Shown here: piece by piece, positions 8,998 through 16,894 of the stretch
Numbering within the stretch: the first letter of the stretch is position 1
Layout: the number at the start of each line of letters is the position of its first letter
NCBI RefSeq assembly: GCF_007748195.1
Contig: NZ_CP037920.1
Span: 1 to 64,000, forward strand
Origin: Gimesia aquarii
Lineage (GTDB): Bacteria; Planctomycetota; Planctomycetia; Planctomycetales; Planctomycetaceae
Direction of reading: 5' to 3'
Length of the DNA: 64,000 nucleotides
Notes under the pieces: model-generated
The model's database searches: none
The model's input: the letters and a program-made list of their open reading frames with translations, nothing else
What the model was told of the DNA's origin: nothing
Position numbers and translations under genes: made by a program

Positions 8998-9961
8998 GAA
9001 AAATCCCCTTCGACTGGAATTTAAGAACGAGTGTTCGTATTACTTGATTGAAGATTGGCAAAGTCAGTGTACCAATATTTTACCCGGTATATCAGGTTTA
9101 CCTGTCTGAGAGTCATCAAGTTGCAAAATTTTTCAAAATTGACACAAACAATGAAACGGCAATTGTGTTCAGCACAGACGATGCCAGTTTGATGAGATTA
9201 CAGCAAACCTCCTTGTTTCCAGGTGTTATTAAAAAAATCCGTCATCATTCCCATCCCGATTTTACCACTGAAAAAACACCCCTTGACGTCAACACGCCAC
9301 TCGCGAAACTCTCTGATCTGCGTCGCGCGCGCGTAGGAAATTTTTCTTATCGGTGAATACTTTCTCTCCTGTCGATCCTGTCACTATAAAACCCTCTCGT
9401 TTGAGCAAGGTTTCAACCGGCAACACAGAAACCGGTTCCCAATCATCACTACTTTGGGTACTCAATCTGACCCTGCCAGAGCCTGATTTCGCAATCTCCC
9501 CGTCACGAAAATGCCAACCCTCAGACAAAACTGCGCAAAACTCAAACTTGACCACCTCCCGCCATTCACGATGATGATGACACCACAAATAACATGCCTT
9601 AATCAAAAGAAACAATTTAAGAACCAGACACCGCATCGCAAACGTCCTCCCCTCAAATGCAATCGAAAAATACAGGCACCCATTCAGCAACCAAACCAAA
9701 GCAGTCAAAAATGAGCGGCACGGCGCTAGCCGCCATTAGTATTCTGAGCAGACACACAAAAGGGTAGACGACGCAAGGTACATCCAAAACGATTTTACCT
9801 AATATCACCTACTTACTGGAGATGAAAATCTGGCTGTAGTGAAAAGGACACTAATTGCTTTGAAAATGTGATTTGTCCTAGGATACAATTGGCAATGAAG
9901 TGGATTTATTTTCGATGGATCTTATGCTCATCCTTATCACTAAAATATGATGAACTAATCA
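8998..9961. other. 960-bp region with little coding content
   Basis: It lies between the start of the secreted-protein gene and the start of the Avs-like gene. Short frames exist on both strands, but only the minus-strand one at 9289-9708 shows any protein-like composition. No transposase remnant, tRNA or direct repeat was seen that would explain an insertion. The right part (9780-9960) is AT-rich and should contain the Avs-like gene's promoter, which I could not assign. Confidence 0.5.
9289..9708 (-). CDS. Possible small membrane protein, uncertain
   Basis: A 139-residue frame with a hydrophobic N-terminal part (two possible membrane segments, or one if translation starts at the internal Met near residue 25), then a short polar domain with a Trp-Gly-rich pattern. 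The topology loosely resembles YgfX/CptA-type small membrane proteins, but no diagnostic motif is present. It sits alone in a gene-poor gap and has no obvious ribosome binding site. It may be spurious or a relic. Confidence 0.28.
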   Translation of the reverse strand: MTALVWLLNGCLYFSIAFEGRTFAMRCLVLKLFLLIKACYLWCHHHREWREVVKFEFCAVLSEGWHFRDGEIAKSGSGRVRLSTQSSDDWEPVSVLPVETLLKREGFIVTGSTGEKVFTDKKNFLRARDADQRVSRVAC

Positions 9962-12900
9962 ATGTCCCGAACTATCACAGAATCTGTTGATGATGCTTTG
10001 AAAGAGATTGGTTCCACTAAGAGCATGCCTCCGTGGTTAGAACGTGATCACCATTTGCTACCTTTTTCCAAATTGACTGGTGACGAGTTTGAGGTTCTTT
10101 GTTTCTTATTACTAAAAGCAAAACATCCTCATGACCGTATTTATTACTACGGTAAGACCTCAGACATGGGGCGGGATATCATCCATACTTCAGTAAGCGG
10201 TCACATCAGACTAATCCAATGTAAGAACTTTGCTAAAAATGTGAATCTTTCTGATATCAGTTCAGAAATGACAAAAGTTTATGTCAATGTTTTATCAGGT
10301 AAGATTCCTAAGAAGCCAGATGAGGTCATATTCTTTGTAGCGAGTGATCTGTCCGCTACCGTCCAAGATTTACTTGAGAATCAATCTGAATGGATCAAAA
10401 TAGCAGACGAACGACTCGAAAAATATTTAAAAAAACCTCCTTCTGAAGAGTTAAAACAATTTGCACGGGACTGGTGGCCCTTTGGAGATCGGCAGACTGG
10501 AATTGCGATTACTGAAGATGTCAAAAAATATTGTCCAGAATTGATTGAGGAATTTTTTAGTGTTCATAAAGTGATAGATGCAAATCGGGCAGACGTCCGT
10601 CAAGATGTTCATGAAGAAATATATTCTGCTTTTGATCACTTCTTGCCTTCATCTAATGACGGTGAGCCAGAGAACTCTCTTTTTTCACCACCCTCACTTT
10701 CAAATGATCAAATCCGTTCGCAATTTGTATTAGCCTCGAAGTCCCTCACAAATTGGCCAAGAACTTTGGCTGATTCACAGTGGATTGAACGGCCAGAGAT
10801 TAATACTCTTTTGAATCTCATTGAATCAAATCCTTGCTATAACTGTGTTCTGCTTGGCGAGCCTGGTAGTGGCAAATCAGCATTACTTGCGCATCTGGCT
10901 AATTGCGTTCATGAAAAAGGGGTAGTCTGTTTGGGAATCAAGGCTGATACCCTTGATGTAAATATTGATTCTTTAGGAAAACTTGCCGAACGTCTCCAAC
11001 TCCGCGCGACTGTAGCAGACTGTGTAAAGACAATAGCTCATGAGCATAAGGTTGTCATGTTGATAGACCAGCTTGATGCCCTTGCCGATCTAGTGGATTT
11101 GCACTCGGAACGGCTTAACGTCTTGCTGAATCTGATTCATGAACTAGCGGAAACTCCTAATGTCTACATTATTGCATCTAGTCGAGTATTTGAATTTAAT
11201 CATGATACAAGATTCCAAACGATTCAAGCAGAAAAATTTCAATTGGAATTACCATCTTGGGAGTCAGTAAATGAAGTCCTCAAACAATTGAAAATAGATG
11301 GATCGAACTGGTCTGATAGTTTCAAGGAAATTTTACGCACACCTCAGAATCTGAAAATCTTCGTCGAACACCTTAATGGTACGACCGAACAAAAAGTATT
11401 TGCCTCATACCAGGAAATGCTAGAAGAGTTATGGAATCAAAAAGTAATTCGTTCCACAGAAGCTGTCGTAAAGAAGGAATTACTTGGAATGGTTTCTGAA
11501 GAAATGTCAGACAAAGAAGTACTTTGGCTTCCAGTTGCTCGTTTTGATGACCATCGTTGTGTGCTTGATCAACTGGTTGCCGATGGCATTTTTAAACTGT
11601 CGGAAAATGGGTTGAAATTCGGCTTCCAGCATCAGACTCTTTTCAGTCATGCACGAGCTCGCGCTGTTGTACAAGGCGATATTGACCTCTGTGATTTTGT
11701 AATTGCAAGACAGCATGCTTTATTTGTACGTCCTACTCTCTGGAGCACACTTGGGTATCTCCGTGAGGCTTCAAGAGAAACATATACTGACCAAATGAGG
11801 AGATTGTGTACGGAACCATTACGGCTTCATATTCAGCATCTTCTACTGGACTTTCTTGGAAGACTTGAAGATCCTGATGATCTCGAAGAAGTGTGGTTGG
11901 TGAAATGGCTGGAAGACGATGACTTTAAAAAACGCGCAATAAATTCGATCTCAAACAGCACTGGTTGGTTTCTAAGGCTTAAGGACAGTCAGATTACTGC
12001 ACTGATGCAAGACCCAACAGGAATAGAATGGCAGTTAGTTGGTCTACTATCAGTCATGATTAGTCGAATCCCAGACGATACACTAGCGTTACTGAAACAG
12101 AATTGGTTTAACGACTCCGATAAAGATCTATTCACATTTCGTATATTTGATCAATTTACTCATTGGTCTATGGATACAGTTGATACCATTTGTCAGATAA
12201 TTGAAAGATCGCAAATCGAAGAGTGGTACATCACGGATATTGCGACTAATGTCGCAAAACACAAACCTGAATTGGCCCCCTGTATCTTAGCAACGGAATT
12301 TAGGAAACAATTGAAGATTGCCCAATCATCAGTTGATTCTTCAAGGGAAGAATTATCACCAGAAGCTAGCTCTGAAGAGCAAATATTCGCTCAGTGGAGG
12401 TACGAATCTAATAATCCATATAGACAGATAATAGAGAATAGTTCTGATCGCTATGGAATGGATGCGATTGCTGAAGCTGCACCATTTGAATTTCTCAATG
12501 AGATGTGGTCGTTATTCTTAGAAGCACTGGAACCAACACTTGACTTACCACATTATATTGTTAATGAGTTCCGTGATTCCAGCATTCTTCATTATGAGTT
12601 TGACCGTGAGTATTCTTCTAAGAGACCTCTGATTGAAGCGATACGAATAGCACTTAGGGAACTGGGAAACAACGATCCAACTGCATTTGAAGAATTTGTC
12701 CGTAGTACTATGGATGTTGATGCTATGTTAGTGCAGCGATTGATCTGCCACTCACTTATTGAACTAGATATTACGTTAGTCAAATTGTCGATGGATTTTT
12801 TGACAAGTGACCCACGAAGACTTCTGATTGGTGATTTTGATGATTACCACAAGGAGTCACGTAAATTGATTACCAAGCTTACTCCGAACCTAAGCACTGA

Positions 12901-14686
12901 GCAGCTTCAACAACTGGAGCAATTTATCAATAATTGGACAAAATACCATGCAAATATTTCGGATGAAACGGTAGAACTAAGACGCGATAGAATAAAGTGG
13001 GACCGAGAAAGTCGACTTCGATTACTTATGGCGATCCCGAAGCATCTGCTTTCAGAAAAATCAAAATCGATCATGGAAGCGGAAGAACTTGCCTTACCAA
13101 CGGTAAAAGCTCGATTAAACTCCAGTGATTCACGCATCGAGATGACGGAAGTCAAAAGTCCGATGTCAACAGAACAAATGAAGAAAGCCAAGGACTCTGA
13201 CATTCTCAATCTGTTTGATGAACTCACTGATGACACTGATTGGGATCATCCCAGACGAGCATTCAAGGGAGGAACTATTGAAGGCTCTCGCGCTTTAGCT
13301 GAACTTGCCAAAGAATATCCTGATCGTGCAGTTGGACTGGTCAAACAATTTCGCAACACTGATCAGCAAACTCCCGTATACCACATCATAAATGCAATTA
13401 GTAAGAGCGATTATTCTACCGACAAACTATTTGATTTGATTCGTGACCTTGCCAAGCTTGGTTTCAATTCTCACCATTTTCAGGATTCTGTTGCCAGTGC
13501 CTGTTCGAGTAGAGTCGATCAACTAGATGGGTTACCTGATGATATCTGCGATCTGTTAAAATCATGGCTTGATAACTGGAAGTTTCCAACTAAAAACAAT
13601 TCCGATGAGGAACAAATTGAAGAATCGAAAAAGGATAATGAAAAACATAGCATTCTATTTGATCAGCAAGGATTAATTCAAATCCCTCACGGAACCTATT
13701 CGATCTTGTCCGCAATTGCCTTCGGTTTGATCAGAAAGAAACCGCCGGCGGCAGAAGACTGGCTCTCAGTTCTTGAACGACACCTGGAACGCCCAGAAAA
13801 ACAAAAAACTTGGCAAGTTTTTTGTCGTGAATTACGAATGTTGCATTACTGTGATCAAACTCAGGCCGTCGACTTTCTTGAAAGACTATTTTCAAAATAT
13901 CCAACGGTTCGTGATTCTTTTCATGGTGTGCATTTAATTGTATCTCTTCGTAAATTTATTGGAGAAGAAACGTTTACAAACTTCAGTGATCAGATTGCAA
14001 ATAGCAACTGGCCATTTGCACATCAAGTCAAAGGTGAACTCTATGGAAGTAGCTATCTCGCTAATGATGGTTTTAATTCAGTTAATAAATATGTCGAAAA
14101 TTTTAGCTCTCCAGAAACTGAAGTTGATAGTCAGTTACTAAAAGGATTTGCTTATGCTATTGCCAACCTCTGGAAAGAGAGTGATAGTCAGCTATTGGCA
14201 ACCGAATCCTTCGAGAAATTAGTAAAGCGAGAGATCACACAAATTAATGAAGCTCTCGCTGGTGTGTTCTTGTCTAATAGATTCGTTCCAAACAGGAACT
14301 CCAAGAGAATTCTGAGCGCAACAGCCGAATATCCCACAATACTTCAAAATGTCAGTGTCTATCATTTTGCCGAAATGCTGGAATTGTTCATAACTTCAGA
14401 GCCTGAGTTAGTTTTGAAACTTTCAAACTTACTTCTGGATCATTTGGAGTTAAATCCTAAAAATGAGTCATCTAGAGACTATTACTTATCTGATCCTGCA
14501 TTGACGAGTATTGCTATGACCCTACAGCGCATGGGGTCAGATTTTAGAAGTGCAGGCCTTGATCTATTCGAACGTCTTTTACGATTAGGTTTTTCATCAA
14601 CGGTTCAAACCATGAATGAATTGGACAATCGACCGCTCAATATTATTCATCGTGCTCGACGAAGAAAACGACGGAGGAAACAGTGA
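9962..14686 (+). CDS. Avs-like STAND NTPase with Mrr-like nuclease domain
   Basis: A 1574-residue probable antiphage protein. Residues about 35-200 look like an Mrr/PD-(D/E)XK nuclease: LTGDEFEVLCF, then MGRD with Asp72, then QCK at 86-88, fitting the D...QxK active site. A P-loop GEPGSGKS follows at about 300-307, with Walker B VVMLIDQLD near 363-371 and the sensor-like IIASSR, so this is a STAND-type ATPase. A winged-helix-like part contains GFQHQTLF near 555. The remaining thousand residues are helical and repeat-rich, as in the sensor end of Avs proteins. Nuclease-STAND-repeat order is the architecture of Avs4-type AVAST proteins, which recognise phage proteins and then degrade DNA. It stands alone between unrelated genes. 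The domain calls are by eye; the Avs identity is inference. Confidence 0.8.
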   Translation: MSRTITESVDDALKEIGSTKSMPPWLERDHHLLPFSKLTGDEFEVLCFLLLKAKHPHDRIYYYGKTSDMGRDIIHTSVSGHIRLIQCKNFAKNVNLSDISSEMTKVYVNVLSGKIPKKPDEVIFFVASDLSATVQDLLENQSEWIKIADERLEKYLKKPPSEELKQFARDWWPFGDRQTGIAITEDVKKYCPELIEEFFSVHKVIDANRADVRQDVHEEIYSAFDHFLPSSNDGEPENSLFSPPSLSNDQIRSQFVLASKSLTNWPRTLADSQWIERPEINTLLNLIESNPCYNCVLLGEPGSGKSALLAHLANCVHEKGVVCLGIKADTLDVNIDSLGKLAERLQLRATVADCVKTIAHEHKVVMLIDQLDALADLVDLHSERLNVLLNLIHELAETPNVYIIASSRVFEFNHDTRFQTIQAEKFQLELPSWESVNEVLKQLKIDGSNWSDSFKEILRTPQNLKIFVEHLNGTTEQKVFASYQEMLEELWNQKVIRSTEAVVKKELLGMVSEEMSDKEVLWLPVARFDDHRCVLDQLVADGIFKLSENGLKFGFQHQTLFSHARARAVVQGDIDLCDFVIARQHALFVRPTLWSTLGYLREASRETYTDQMRRLCTEPLRLHIQHLLLDFLGRLEDPDDLEEVWLVKWLEDDDFKKRAINSISNSTGWFLRLKDSQITALMQDPTGIEWQLVGLLSVMISRIPDDTLALLKQNWFNDSDKDLFTFRIFDQFTHWSMDTVDTICQIIERSQIEEWYITDIATNVAKHKPELAPCILATEFRKQLKIAQSSVDSSREELSPEASSEEQIFAQWRYESNNPYRQIIENSSDRYGMDAIAEAAPFEFLNEMWSLFLEALEPTLDLPHYIVNEFRDSSILHYEFDREYSSKRPLIEAIRIALRELGNNDPTAFEEFVRSTMDVDAMLVQRLICHSLIELDITLVKLSMDFLTSDPRRLLIGDFDDYHKESRKLITKLTPNLSTEQLQQLEQFINNWTKYHANISDETVELRRDRIKWDRESRLRLLMAIPKHLLSEKSKSIMEAEELALPTVKARLNSSDSRIEMTEVKSPMSTEQMKKAKDSDILNLFDELTDDTDWDHPRRAFKGGTIEGSRALAELAKEYPDRAVGLVKQFRNTDQQTPVYHIINAISKSDYSTDKLFDLIRDLAKLGFNSHHFQDSVASACSSRVDQLDGLPDDICDLLKSWLDNWKFPTKNNSDEEQIEESKKDNEKHSILFDQQGLIQIPHGTYSILSAIAFGLIRKKPPAAEDWLSVLERHLERPEKQKTWQVFCRELRMLHYCDQTQAVDFLERLFSKYPTVRDSFHGVHLIVSLRKFIGEETFTNFSDQIANSNWPFAHQVKGELYGSSYLANDGFNSVNKYVENFSSPETEVDSQLLKGFAYAIANLWKESDSQLLATESFEKLVKREITQINEALAGVFLSNRFVPNRNSKRILSATAEYPTILQNVSVYHFAEMLELFITSEPELVLKLSNLLLDHLELNPKNESSRDYYLSDPALTSIAMTLQRMGSDFRSAGLDLFERLLRLGFSSTVQTMNELDNRPLNIIHRARRRKRRRKQ

Positions 14687-14746
14687 GTGGGTTTGCTCCT
14701 ATCTATTCTTCCTACACCAGACTTCATATAAAAAATAAAATTTCAG

Positions 14747-16894
14747 CTATTTTAACTCCAAAGGCTCACCAATCACTTGAATACTCAACAGGTGATGCGA
14801 GGGCATTTTTGTGCCGCGTTCTACAATGGGGACTTTGCCGTCTTTCTCAAGATCGTCTTTCGTTAAGGTCCAGAGTACTTTCTTTTGGCGGTTGATTTCA
14901 AAAGCCTGTACGTCGTTATTCATTCCTTTTTTATGATGATAGTCGGAGTTGATGACAACCAGGTTTCCATTTTTGCGCACGTGAACTCCGACGGGGTACA
15001 AGAGTTGAAAGCCCAGATCGTCTTTCGTATTTAACTCCCAGGTGATCTTGCCCTCCGGGTCGATTTCAATAATCCGGTATGACGTAATGCAGGGCACCAG
15101 AGTGCGACCATTCTCTAAACGTATGGCTGTGAAGGGGCGGTCGTTTTCCTGAAGCGCGTATTGCCAGATGATTTTGCCTTTCGCATTCAGTTCGAGGATT
15201 TTCTTGTTGTCACGGTAAGAGATCAGATATGTGCCTTGTGGCGTTTTGCGTGCCTGCATATAGCGGTTGTGGGGGTTCTTGCCTCCGTCGGGCAAATCAA
15301 TGGCTAAGGTTACCTGCTGCCTGCGGTTGACTTCCAACAGCCTTTGATTGCCGCAGTCGAGAATTAGTACCTTACCGTCCTCCAGAGGTTGGCAGGAGTT
15401 GATTTCCTGCTTCCCTTTCTCCCGGGGAACGTTGAACTCCCAGACCGTTTGTTTGGCGGGATTGACTTCCCGCGCGCCGAATCGATGGGAAAAGAGGATG
15501 TTTCCGTTCTCTAATTTCCAGGCATCATAGACGAGCTCGATTTCGGGATCCTGATAATGCCAGACGATATTGTTCGCTTGGTCCAACTCCATCAAACCTT
15601 CACCATATCCGATGAGCAGTCGATGCCCGGGACTTTTATTCGCGGGTGTCTTCGAGAGACTTTTGTCTTTCAGCAATGTTCCGGCACGGCCGGCGAGTTT
15701 GAGATAGTGGTCGCTCGGCAGACCTTCAAACGTACTAAATTGGGCTCCGTTGGCGGTCGGCGGAGTGTTAGTGCATTTGAAGATCGCGGTGCCTTCATCG
15801 ACTTCGTCGAACATGGCGACGTAAATCATCTTACATCCGACGCGCTTCGCGGCACTGACCTGTGACCAGAAGAATTCGCCCTTGAGCCGTGGAATCTGAT
15901 TCAGTTTCCCGCCGTGCAGGTTGTGCCAGCTGAATCCGGGAAACACCACAGGCAGAAAGTCGAGTTCTCTCTGTTCGCACCACCGTTGATCGGGTTGCCA
16001 GACTCTGGTCGCGTGACGAACCGCTTCCTCGGGACTTCGATAACGACCAATCGTCCACGGGCTGATGACATCAGCGGTTTGAACGATTTCATGCAGTAAC
16101 GGATCGTTGACGGCATCGCGGGTCCCTTCACGCCAGAACGAAGGCACACCCAGCATCACTGCACAGCCACTGGATTTCAGCCACTTCACCAGTTCAAAAC
16201 ATTCCTCCAGTGAATAGGGGCGATTGTCACTGAAGCCGATTCCCCAGACCGCTACCAGCGGTTTGCCTTCGTGATGCAGGTAGGTTGTATCGCCAGTGAT
16301 CTTCTTCTGTTCGCGGAGCCGAGTCCAGTCTTCGCGCACGCGCTTGACCTGCCCGGCTTTCAGGCCGCTGAGGTCATACATCACTGCAAACGCCCGTCCC
16401 AACTGGTTTGCTCCCGCGCGGACATGAGACAATACGGTGTTATTGTTTCGTAACAGGGCCGGTGCCGACAACCCCAACGCAAATCGCTGCAAAAACGCAC
16501 CATCGATTCCGTAATCACGCATCCAGCGAAAATGTCGCTGAACCGTTTTACGGTTCGCACTGCTGAAGACTTCCGCCGTGCTGCCATCGGCGTGTTTGAA
16601 TCCTGTCGCAAATCGTTCATCGGGATCCAACTCCGACACATCGGGCCACAAATCGACGGTGACGTTTCCTGATGCGAATGGTTTCCTGCGATTTCGCGCC
16701 CAGTGTTTCCAGCCCAGATTGGCTCCATCGTCTGCGCAGTTGAACCAGCCCTGATATCCCACCATGACTTTGCCGGTAAGCGTGCTGCAATCAACGGGAT
16801 CTGACGCAGCCTCTGTTTGTGCGACAGCGGGCTGAGCAAAAAACACCGATACAATGATGATGAGCAGCGTGAATATAAAAGTGGTTCTTTTCAT
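14747..16894 (-). CDS. Secreted GH71/99-like protein with C-terminal beta-propeller
   Basis: After a signal peptide, residues about 40-370 resemble the GH71/GH99-like barrel found in bacterial secreted proteins: GYQGWFNC, a DLWPDVSELD stretch, YGIDGAFLQRF and MFDEVDEGTAI. GH99 enzymes are endo-acting mannosidases and GH71 are alpha-1,3-glucanases; the substrate here is unknown. The rest is a PQQ/arylsulfotransferase-like propeller with repeated LxNGxxL and E(L/I)xxxGKIxW units. I use the ATG at 16894 rather than a TTG ten codons upstream. It is the last gene of the sulfatase operon, so a role in polysaccharide sensing or cleavage is inferred. A related lone propeller occurs at 54484-55425. 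Confidence 0.82.
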   Translation of the reverse strand: MKRTTFIFTLLIIIVSVFFAQPAVAQTEAASDPVDCSTLTGKVMVGYQGWFNCADDGANLGWKHWARNRRKPFASGNVTVDLWPDVSELDPDERFATGFKHADGSTAEVFSSANRKTVQRHFRWMRDYGIDGAFLQRFALGLSAPALLRNNNTVLSHVRAGANQLGRAFAVMYDLSGLKAGQVKRVREDWTRLREQKKITGDTTYLHHEGKPLVAVWGIGFSDNRPYSLEECFELVKWLKSSGCAVMLGVPSFWREGTRDAVNDPLLHEIVQTADVISPWTIGRYRSPEEAVRHATRVWQPDQRWCEQRELDFLPVVFPGFSWHNLHGGKLNQIPRLKGEFFWSQVSAAKRVGCKMIYVAMFDEVDEGTAIFKCTNTPPTANGAQFSTFEGLPSDHYLKLAGRAGTLLKDKSLSKTPANKSPGHRLLIGYGEGLMELDQANNIVWHYQDPEIELVYDAWKLENGNILFSHRFGAREVNPAKQTVWEFNVPREKGKQEINSCQPLEDGKVLILDCGNQRLLEVNRRQQVTLAIDLPDGGKNPHNRYMQARKTPQGTYLISYRDNKKILELNAKGKIIWQYALQENDRPFTAIRLENGRTLVPCITSYRIIEIDPEGKITWELNTKDDLGFQLLYPVGVHVRKNGNLVVINSDYHHKKGMNNDVQAFEINRQKKVLWTLTKDDLEKDGKVPIVERGTKMPSHHLLSIQVIGEPLELK

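What the first reader, a model, noticed from the sequence alone, without database searches (positions are those of the whole stretch)
9962..14686. Solitary Avs-like protein: Mrr-type nuclease, STAND NTPase and long helical sensor
The three-part order matches Avs4-type AVAST defence proteins: D...QxK nuclease site (D72, Q86-x-K88), P-loop at about 300, and a thousand-residue repeat region for recognition. It sits alone between housekeeping and polysaccharide genes with a gene-poor flank. The C-terminal sensor is the part most likely to be new, and its phage target cannot be read from sequence.
Basis: partly seen in the sequence, partly recalled or inferred. Interest (0 to 1): 0.75.

Follow-up and report, generated by a model that had tools for sequence, protein, structure and literature searches.

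The report
Solitary bacterial immune receptor with swappable warhead
A planctomycete bacterium carries a single large protein built like known phage-sensing immune receptors, with a DNA-cutting front end, a nucleotide switch and a long sensor; its relatives keep the switch and sensor but exchange the front end for other likely cell-killing enzymes.

Summary
The 1574-aa ORF at 9962-14686 (+) is real, intact and under purifying selection. It has an Mrr-type nuclease domain (LmuA-like), a STAND NTPase and a ~1000-residue C-terminus predicted all-helical (poor model). No partner gene was recognised. It is sporadic (orthologue in 2 of 17 genus genomes) and lies 4.3 kb downstream of gyrB, where a closely related sister genome holds other genes. 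Relatives in planctomycetes, a Nostoc plasmid and a probable prophage share NTPase and sensor end to end but carry Mrr, PNP/UDP-phosphorylase or TIR/SEFIR effectors; the Mrr-bearing cores are not one clade (AU p 4e-59), so effectors were exchanged repeatedly. Several relatives sit beside DISARM-like, Druantia-like or mobile-element genes, one between terminase and portal genes.

So it is very probably an Avs-like ligand-activated, DNA-destroying receptor. It is not an Avs4: no Avs model matches it; its nearest models are the PADLOC candidate PDC-M54A (switch) and LmuA (effector), the nearest solved chain 9n00. Less expected: a polybasic C-terminal tail in 13 of 15 Mrr/PNP-type or unassigned members, absent from 2 TIR-type and 10 Cap4-like relatives; a fast-evolving sensor patch (751-825); and a prophage cargo slot. 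Ligand and defence activity are untested.

The parts
9962..14686 (+). Single gene, 1574 aa: Mrr-type nuclease - STAND NTPase - long helical sensor
10067..10468 (+). Effector: Mrr/LmuA-type PD-(D/E)xK-like nuclease domain (residues 36-169), catalytic D72 and Q86-x-K88
   Evidence: LmuA 4.9e-13; Mrr_cat_2 6.6e-5, above cut-off; residues conserved in L006 and L143, pattern also in L148
10793..11674 (+). STAND NTPase with winged-helix part (residues 278-571): P-loop 299-306, Walker B D369/D372, R408, FQHQT 555-559
   Evidence: AAA above cut-off, AAA_16/nSTAND3/NACHT below; PDC-M54A 2.2e-15 at 296-571; invariant residues in 23 sequences
11639..14641 (+). C-terminal sensor (residues 560-1560), homologous end to end with relatives that bear other effectors
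   Evidence: alignment A1, all-helical low-confidence model, second, weaker stretch of similarity to PDB 9n00
12212..12436 (+). Fast-evolving patch of the sensor (residues 751-825), dN/dS about 0.73 against 0.19 for the whole gene
   Evidence: rough, one pair of sequences
14648..14683 (+). Polybasic C-terminal tail (residues 1563-1574, HRARRRKRRRKQ)
9800..14762 (.). Interval without DNA similarity to the closely related sister genome G002, which holds other genes between the same flanks

Best explanation
It is a single-gene innate immune receptor of the bacterial STAND (NLR-like, Avs-like) kind. The likely cycle: the protein rests with ADP; a phage or mobile-element product (protein, or protein on nucleic acid) binds the ~1000-residue helical sensor; the NTPase opens and exchanges ADP for ATP; protomers assemble through the NTPase; the clustered Mrr-type domains then cut DNA, destroying invader and host DNA and aborting the infection. 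Shown here: the three parts, intact motifs, purifying selection, sporadic occurrence with different genes at the site in the sister genome, and exchange of effectors on a conserved NTPase-sensor core. Inferred from Avs/NLR precedent: ligand binding, assembly, DNA cleavage and cell death.
For: Domains and motifs. Effector exchange on the core clade: Mrr in 4, PNP_UDP_1 in 9, TIR/SEFIR in 2 of the 15 members whose N-terminus could be read; the Mrr-bearing cores are not one clade (L148 core 58% identical to PNP-bearing L147; AU p 3.75e-59). Defence models: PDC-M54A in 20 of 23 relatives, a PN-superfamily effector model in 8, bSEFIR in 1, LmuA for the window's effector. Neighbours in relatives: DrmD and type IIG RM (L146), DruE (L147); T4SS coupling protein (L149), ArdC (L143), Y1 transposase and HicB (L006); portal and TerL (L103). 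Sporadic: orthologue in 2 of 17 genus genomes, and the two copies lie in different surroundings: G011's own gyrB region, read 16 kb long, has no receptor. Sister genome G002 holds other genes between the same flanks. L006 gene GC 0.40 against 0.52 for the rest of its contig; dN/dS 0.19.
Against: No defence or mobile gene was recognised among the window gene's own scanned neighbours (10 by Pfam; 7 by PADLOC). No Avs model matches it. The PDC-M54A model is not very specific: it rang in 28 of 99 phylum genomes, mostly as short P-loop matches, and in 3 of 14 control genomes; the window's match was the best of the 28. A defence or mobile-element gene was seen at 7 of 17 core-clade loci, most of the other 10 were not fully scanned, and no background rate was measured. 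Structure models are too poor to test the sensor fold. Gene GC (0.40) is close to that of dnaA (0.41). No activity is known for any member found here.
Confidence: 0.82

Rival explanations
1. It is an Avs4 (AVAST type 4) and senses the phage portal with an Mrr nuclease response.
For: Same order of parts (Mrr in Avs4 is recalled; the portal as Avs4's ligand was read in a passage of PMC12724215); 2 of 23 relatives match an Avs4 model, best 9.1e-8, and 5 of 23 an Avs2 model (the answer does not say which members).
Against: The window protein itself matches no Avs model at E <= 1; the family profile reaches an Avs2 chain only over the P-loop at 0.0075. The Mrr-bearing cores are not one clade and near core relatives carry PNP, so Mrr is not a stable mark of this core.
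Confidence: 0.05
2. A nucleic-acid-triggered receptor (invading DNA or a nucleoprotein) rather than one for a free phage protein: the polybasic tail and helical sensor bind DNA or RNA and license the effector.
For: Tail with 7 or more K/R in the last 25 residues in 13 of 15 Mrr/PNP-type or unassigned members with a C-terminus, against 14 of 195 background ORFs, 0 of 2 TIR-type and 0 of 10 Cap4-like relatives. A member beside a conjugation coupling gene and one on a plasmid, both TIR-type and tail-less, fit broader targets for the family.
Against: A tail can also bind acidic lipid, RNA or partner subunits; two fragments (L148, L141) have only 5 basic residues in the last 25 (counted by eye); relatedness inflates the count; background ORFs were called mechanically.
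Confidence: 0.25
3. Regulated cell death or developmental signalling in planctomycetes, not defence.
For: Such conflict systems are over-represented in multicellular or complex bacteria, planctomycetes among them (passages of PMC8195603).
Against: Sporadic presence and different genes at the site in the sister genome, presence on a plasmid and in a probable prophage, effector exchange.
Confidence: 0.08
4. A Lamassu component (LmuA) fused to an unrelated ATPase.
For: Effector domain matches LmuA at 4.9e-13.
Against: No LmuB partner among 7 scanned upstream neighbours: the only LmuB row is an E 0.0084 P-loop match to DnaA; the protein has its own NTPase and sensor. Downstream neighbours were scanned by Pfam only.
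Confidence: 0.02

Closest known systems
PADLOC candidate PDC-M54A (phage-defence candidate)
   Same: STAND region 296-571 of the window matches at 2.2e-15; 20 of 23 relatives match
   Different: The match covers neither effector nor sensor of the window protein; the model also gives short P-loop matches in many genomes; no paper on it was found
Avs (AVAST) STAND receptors, Avs1-Avs5
   Same: N-terminal effector, central STAND NTPase, long C-terminal sensor in one protein (passages of PMC12931631); nuclease effector as in Avs1-4
   Different: No Avs model matches the window protein; only weak Avs2/Avs4 matches in some relatives; effectors of this family include PNP and TIR/SEFIR
PDB 9n00/9n01/9yix, 'AAA family ATPase', 1523 aa
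   Same: Nearest solved structure by sequence: 5.4e-19 with the window protein, 5.8e-71 with a 23-sequence profile over profile positions 8-659, plus a weak stretch in the sensor
   Different: Probably on the Cap4-like side of the family (L040 alone finds it at 1.9e-22; L155 alone does not at 0.001); its identity and function were not found in print
Lamassu nuclease LmuA
   Same: Effector domain 36-169
   Different: Different switch and sensor; no LmuB recognised
PNP-, REase- and TIR-armed conflict systems (Kaur et al. 2020, 2021; passages seen in PMC7159879 and PMC8195603)
   Same: Interchangeable effectors (REase, PNPase, TIR) in complex bacteria including planctomycetes
   Different: The passages seen describe other NTPase clades and adaptor domains; this core was not named in them

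Membership tests
STAND NTPase superfamily | Walker A, Walker B with DxxD-type motif, conserved arginine, winged-helix histidine | tested here: met
   Invariant G302, G304, K305, D369, D372, R408, H557 in 23 sequences; nSTAND3, NACHT and AAA_16 matches below cut-off, AAA above
Avs (AVAST) | Effector - STAND - large C-terminal sensor in one chain | tested here: met
   sensor fold itself not established
Avs (AVAST) | Sequence match to an Avs family model | tested here: not met
   No Avs row for the window protein at E <= 1 or <= 0.01; 5 of 23 relatives match an Avs2 model and 2 an Avs4 model, best 2.7e-6 and 9.1e-8
Avs (AVAST) | Activation by a phage protein such as terminase or portal; ATP-driven assembly | not testable with these tools
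   needs co-expression and structure
Mrr-type nuclease (effector) | Catalytic D...(Q/E)xK with family match | tested here: met
   Mrr_cat_2 23.2 bits against cut-off 22; D72, Q86, K88 conserved; L006's own Mrr matches are below cut-off
Lamassu | LmuA nuclease with LmuB SMC-like ATPase partner | tested here: not met
   LmuA-like domain present, no LmuB among 7 scanned upstream neighbours; downstream neighbours scanned by Pfam only
PDC-M54 | Match to component A model | tested here: inconclusive
   Partial match, 321-611 of 1621; model gives unspecific P-loop matches elsewhere; other components not looked for by name

The most novel reading that the evidence does not exclude
A branch of NLR-like receptors separate from Avs1-5 in which one ~1000-residue sensor, nearly unchanged in length from planctomycetes to Nostoc, is wired in turn to a DNase, a nucleoside-phosphorylase-type (probably ATP-consuming) and a TIR-type effector, and in the DNase and phosphorylase versions ends in a polybasic tail that docks the activated receptor on nucleic acid or on a packaging nucleoprotein. 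One copy is phage cargo lying between that phage's own terminase and portal genes, whose products are ligands of Avs1-3 and Avs4, so the phage must either escape its own receptor or the receptor must read another ligand: a natural self/non-self test.
Probability: 0.25. Interest if true: 0.75.

Novelty: new variant of a known kind. Interest (0 to 1): 0.52.

Why it matters
It adds a branch of bacterial NLR-like immunity on which the searches made here found no paper. It offers a natural experiment: relatives (L147 and L148, cores 58% identical) with different killing enzymes on one sensor, and a phage-borne copy beside the genes whose products known Avs proteins sense. This makes 'what does the sensor see, and does the effector matter for it' directly testable.

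Tried and rejected
Fold searches with them gave generic AAA+/NLR and HEAT-solenoid names with TM-scores up to 0.32 and 0.40, mostly far lower; I draw nothing from them.

PDB search with the effector alone found nothing meaningful. PHROGs gave only two weak matches for the window protein (1.4e-5 and 3.6e-5). Phages collection: no match by protein. Viral contigs: two scans found no relative, the third found one. The PDC-M54A search over 99 genomes returned mostly short P-loop matches and rang in 3 of 14 controls, so I used the protein and the alignment instead. The promoter/terminator scan gave no more sites than shuffles. Literature: no held paper names 9N00/9N01; the 12 papers found for PDC-M54/M54A are unrelated by title; the listings shown held no paper on this family by title and abstract start. 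Gao et al. 2022 is not held, so Avs facts come from passages of PMC12931631 and PMC12724215 and from recall. Passages of PMC12799240 and PMC13236601 were seen and not used.

Rejected: Avs4 membership, Lamassu membership, chance ORF. Rows left out: the Cap4-like relative in G550 (L153) was fetched but is in neither tree, A5 nor the tail count; fragments L036/L037, L038, L141 and L148 are not in A5; weak matches (E above about 1e-10) and the fragment G436 were not followed. The label 'Cap4-like' for the 10 rows is by tree position; only 4 of the 10 match Cap4_nuclease at E <= 0.01 and one passes the cut-off.

Full report
What is there. The ORF at 9962-14686 (+) is open for 1574 codons. Pfam finds Mrr_cat_2 at 64-146 just above its cut-off and a P-loop ATPase at about 278-410 (AAA above cut-off; AAA_16, nSTAND3 and NACHT below). 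PADLOC finds LmuA at 36-169 (4.9e-13), the candidate PDC-M54A at 296-571 (2.2e-15), a weak TRIP13 match, and no Avs model. In a 23-sequence alignment the P-loop residues G302, G304 and K305, D369, Q370 and D372, R408 and F555/H557 are invariant. The C-terminus from about 560 is predicted all-helical, but from a two-sequence alignment with mean pLDDT 48, so this is a weak statement.

Where it is. The window begins a one-contig genome of 7.4 Mb whose first genes are dnaA, dnaN, dciA, gyrB, a phosphoribosyltransferase and truD, then a 559-aa gene without Pfam match, then this gene, then a Mala_s_1-like gene (GH99 below cut-off), an NHL-repeat gene and a sulfatase. The nearest named relative is Gimesia sp. 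SAT87, which carries a 72%-identical full-length copy (L006; same contig as in G011). Among 17 genus genomes (2 of them 74-76% complete) the orthologue is in 2; G013 has a distant Cap4-like relative. The upstream 559-aa gene has a match of 62% identity or more in 16 of 17, the downstream gene a near-full-length match in 9 of 17 and only partial or paralogous ones in the rest. In G011 itself the 16 kb read around gyrB hold no receptor (L095); its copy lies elsewhere, between HicB and a Y1 transposase. In the sister genome G002 (flanking proteins 95-97% identical; flanking DNA 94-96%) the interval that corresponds to window 9800-14762 holds about 5.4 kb of other genes (rhodanese-like, methyltransferase-like, reductase-like by eye). 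A 1.7-kb part of that set lies elsewhere in the window's genome at 84% identity. The gene has GC 0.40 (GC3 0.34), the next gene downstream 0.52, dnaA 0.41; composition alone is modest evidence here, but the L006 copy, also 0.40, lies in a contig that is otherwise 0.52.

Relatives. Protein and profile searches over 59, 392 and 397 genomes (samples overlap) matched 4, 24 (many weak, P-loop only) and 25 genomes; the plasmid collection gave 8 records, phages none, viral contigs one locus in three scans. I took 17 as a core clade (window, G011, G696, G408, G428, G040, G373, G338, G609, G646, G728, G601, G682, G689, G640, the Nostoc C057 plasmid, contig L103); a distant Cap4-like clade stands apart. 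In one search the matches in G695, G648 (two) and G002 cover only the N-terminal part of the profile.

Effector exchange. Of the 15 core-clade members whose N-terminus was readable, 4 have Mrr (window, L006, L143, L148), 9 PNP_UDP_1, all above cut-off (L034, L033, L035, L036, L144, L145, L146, L147, L103), and 2 TIR/SEFIR (L149, L007) (L006's own Mrr matches are below cut-off). Core-clade members in the 23-row alignment are 21-72% identical to the window, Cap4-like rows 15-20%. The region from window residue 262 to 1562 is 1258-1340 residues long in all 23 rows. In the tree the window, L006 and L143 form one clade near PNP-bearing L034 (the long-branched TIR row L149 is placed there too in one tree, uncertainly). 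L148 groups with PNP-bearing L147 (core 58% identical) although its Mrr domain is 37-42% identical to those of the other three; a tree with all four Mrr cores together is rejected (AU p 3.75e-59; quick tree, first piece of L148 only, 49% of columns). Hence effectors were exchanged more than once; whether Mrr was gained twice or PNP regained cannot be told. That L148 is read in two frames is a caveat.

Neighbours in relatives. L146 lies beside a DrmD-like helicase (7.7e-140) and a type IIG restriction enzyme; L147 beside a DruE-like protein (1e-134) and a weak dGTPase-like match. L149 has a T4SS coupling protein, L143 ArdC and an IrrE-like peptidase; the Nostoc copy is on a mobilizable plasmid, second gene after an integrase. 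So a defence or mobile-element gene was seen at 7 of 17 core-clade loci (L006, L103, L143, L146, L147, L149, L007); most of the other 10 were not scanned in full, the window's own scanned neighbours showed none, and no background rate was measured.

Phage-borne copy. On L103 the PNP-type gene lies, in opposite orientation, between genes matching portal (phrog_21, 2e-63) and terminase large subunit (phrog_38, 3.5e-29), with a capsid-protease and a decoration protein next. A portal match at E <= 1e-60 occurs in 65 of 397 class genomes, so the contig is probably a prophage. In 8 close relatives fetched (portal 87-95% identical) the terminase-portal interval was about 350 bases in 4 (L167, L168, L169, L173) and carried other ORFs in 4 (L170, L171, L172, L174); with L103, 1 of 9 holds the receptor. 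Of the cargo ORFs two were tested: one matches the Mrr domain of an Mrr-APAZ pAgo (1.2e-12, L171), one the HSP90-type ATPase domain (7.8e-11, L172). The slot looks like a cargo position, probably partly for defence.

Selection and sensor surface. Window against L006: dN/dS 0.19 over the gene. Of 21 windows two could not be computed (saturated). One stretch, 751-825, reaches about 0.73 (40% identity); 901-975 gives 0.37 (at 79% identity, low synonymous difference) and 1351-1425 0.35 (48% identity); 526-675 is 87-91% identical. One pair of sequences, synonymous sites near saturation: these are candidates for the ligand face, no more.

Polybasic tail. The window protein ends HRARRRKRRRKQ. Among Mrr/PNP-type members with their own C-terminus, 12 of 12 counted have 7-12 K/R in the last 25 residues; the G338 fragment has 11; the fragments of G689 and G640 have 5 each (ends printed, counted by eye). 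So 13 of 15. TIR/SEFIR members have 2 and 4, the 10 Cap4-like rows 2-5. Of 196 background ORFs 15 reach 7, one of which is that G338 fragment, so 14 of 195. Relatedness inflates this, but the tail persists where proteins are only about 25% identical.

What is known. The nearest solved chain is 9n00 (9n01, 9yix), named only 'AAA family ATPase'. The 23-sequence profile covers its residues 7-648 at 5.8e-71, so it is a full relative, probably on the Cap4-like side (L040 alone 1.9e-22; L155 alone nothing at 0.001). An Avs2 chain (9o4e) appears at 0.0075 over the P-loop only (best 60 of 149 shown). Avs1-4 are described as nuclease-armed STAND proteins that sense terminase or portal (passages of PMC12931631, and PMC12724215). 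Exchange of REase, PNPase and TIR effectors in other conflict systems is described in passages of PMC8195603. That PNP-type effectors can cleave ATP in phage defence is recalled, not read here.

Mechanism. Best reading: ligand-gated STAND receptor with nuclease output causing abortive infection or DNA destruction. Shown: parts, motifs, selection, sporadic occurrence and differing locus content, effector exchange. Inferred: ligand, assembly, catalysis, defence. Membership in Avs1-5 is not claimed.

Noticed in passing
L103:4786-14420 and relatives L167-L174 (terminase-portal interval): In a phage family whose portal is common in genomes of this class, the interval between terminase large subunit and portal is a cargo slot: about 350 bases in 4, other ORFs in 4, and a PNP-STAND receptor in 1 of 9 examined; two tested cargo proteins match a Mrr domain and an HSP90-type ATPase domain.
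   Followed up: partly
L034:6252-15576: The G408 homologue lies directly downstream of gyrB- and dnaN-like genes (named by eye), so receptors of this family sit near gyrB in two different families of the class; coincidence or a shared insertion hotspot.
   Followed up: no
window:8998-14750 and L084, L085, L086-L089: The interval after truD and the 559-aa gene differs among genus genomes: about 5.4 kb of other genes in G002, similar genes inverted in G003, about 26 kb before the partial downstream homologue in G013.
   Followed up: partly
L034:4481-5829: JAB-like (just below cut-off) and ThiF genes side by side near the G408 receptor, reminiscent of ubiquitin-like conjugation cassettes.
   Followed up: no
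G002:C1:7091679-7092572, G648, G695: Other proteins (open frames of 484-1252 aa) match only the N-terminal part of the family profile: perhaps further effector-sharing proteins with another core.
   Followed up: no
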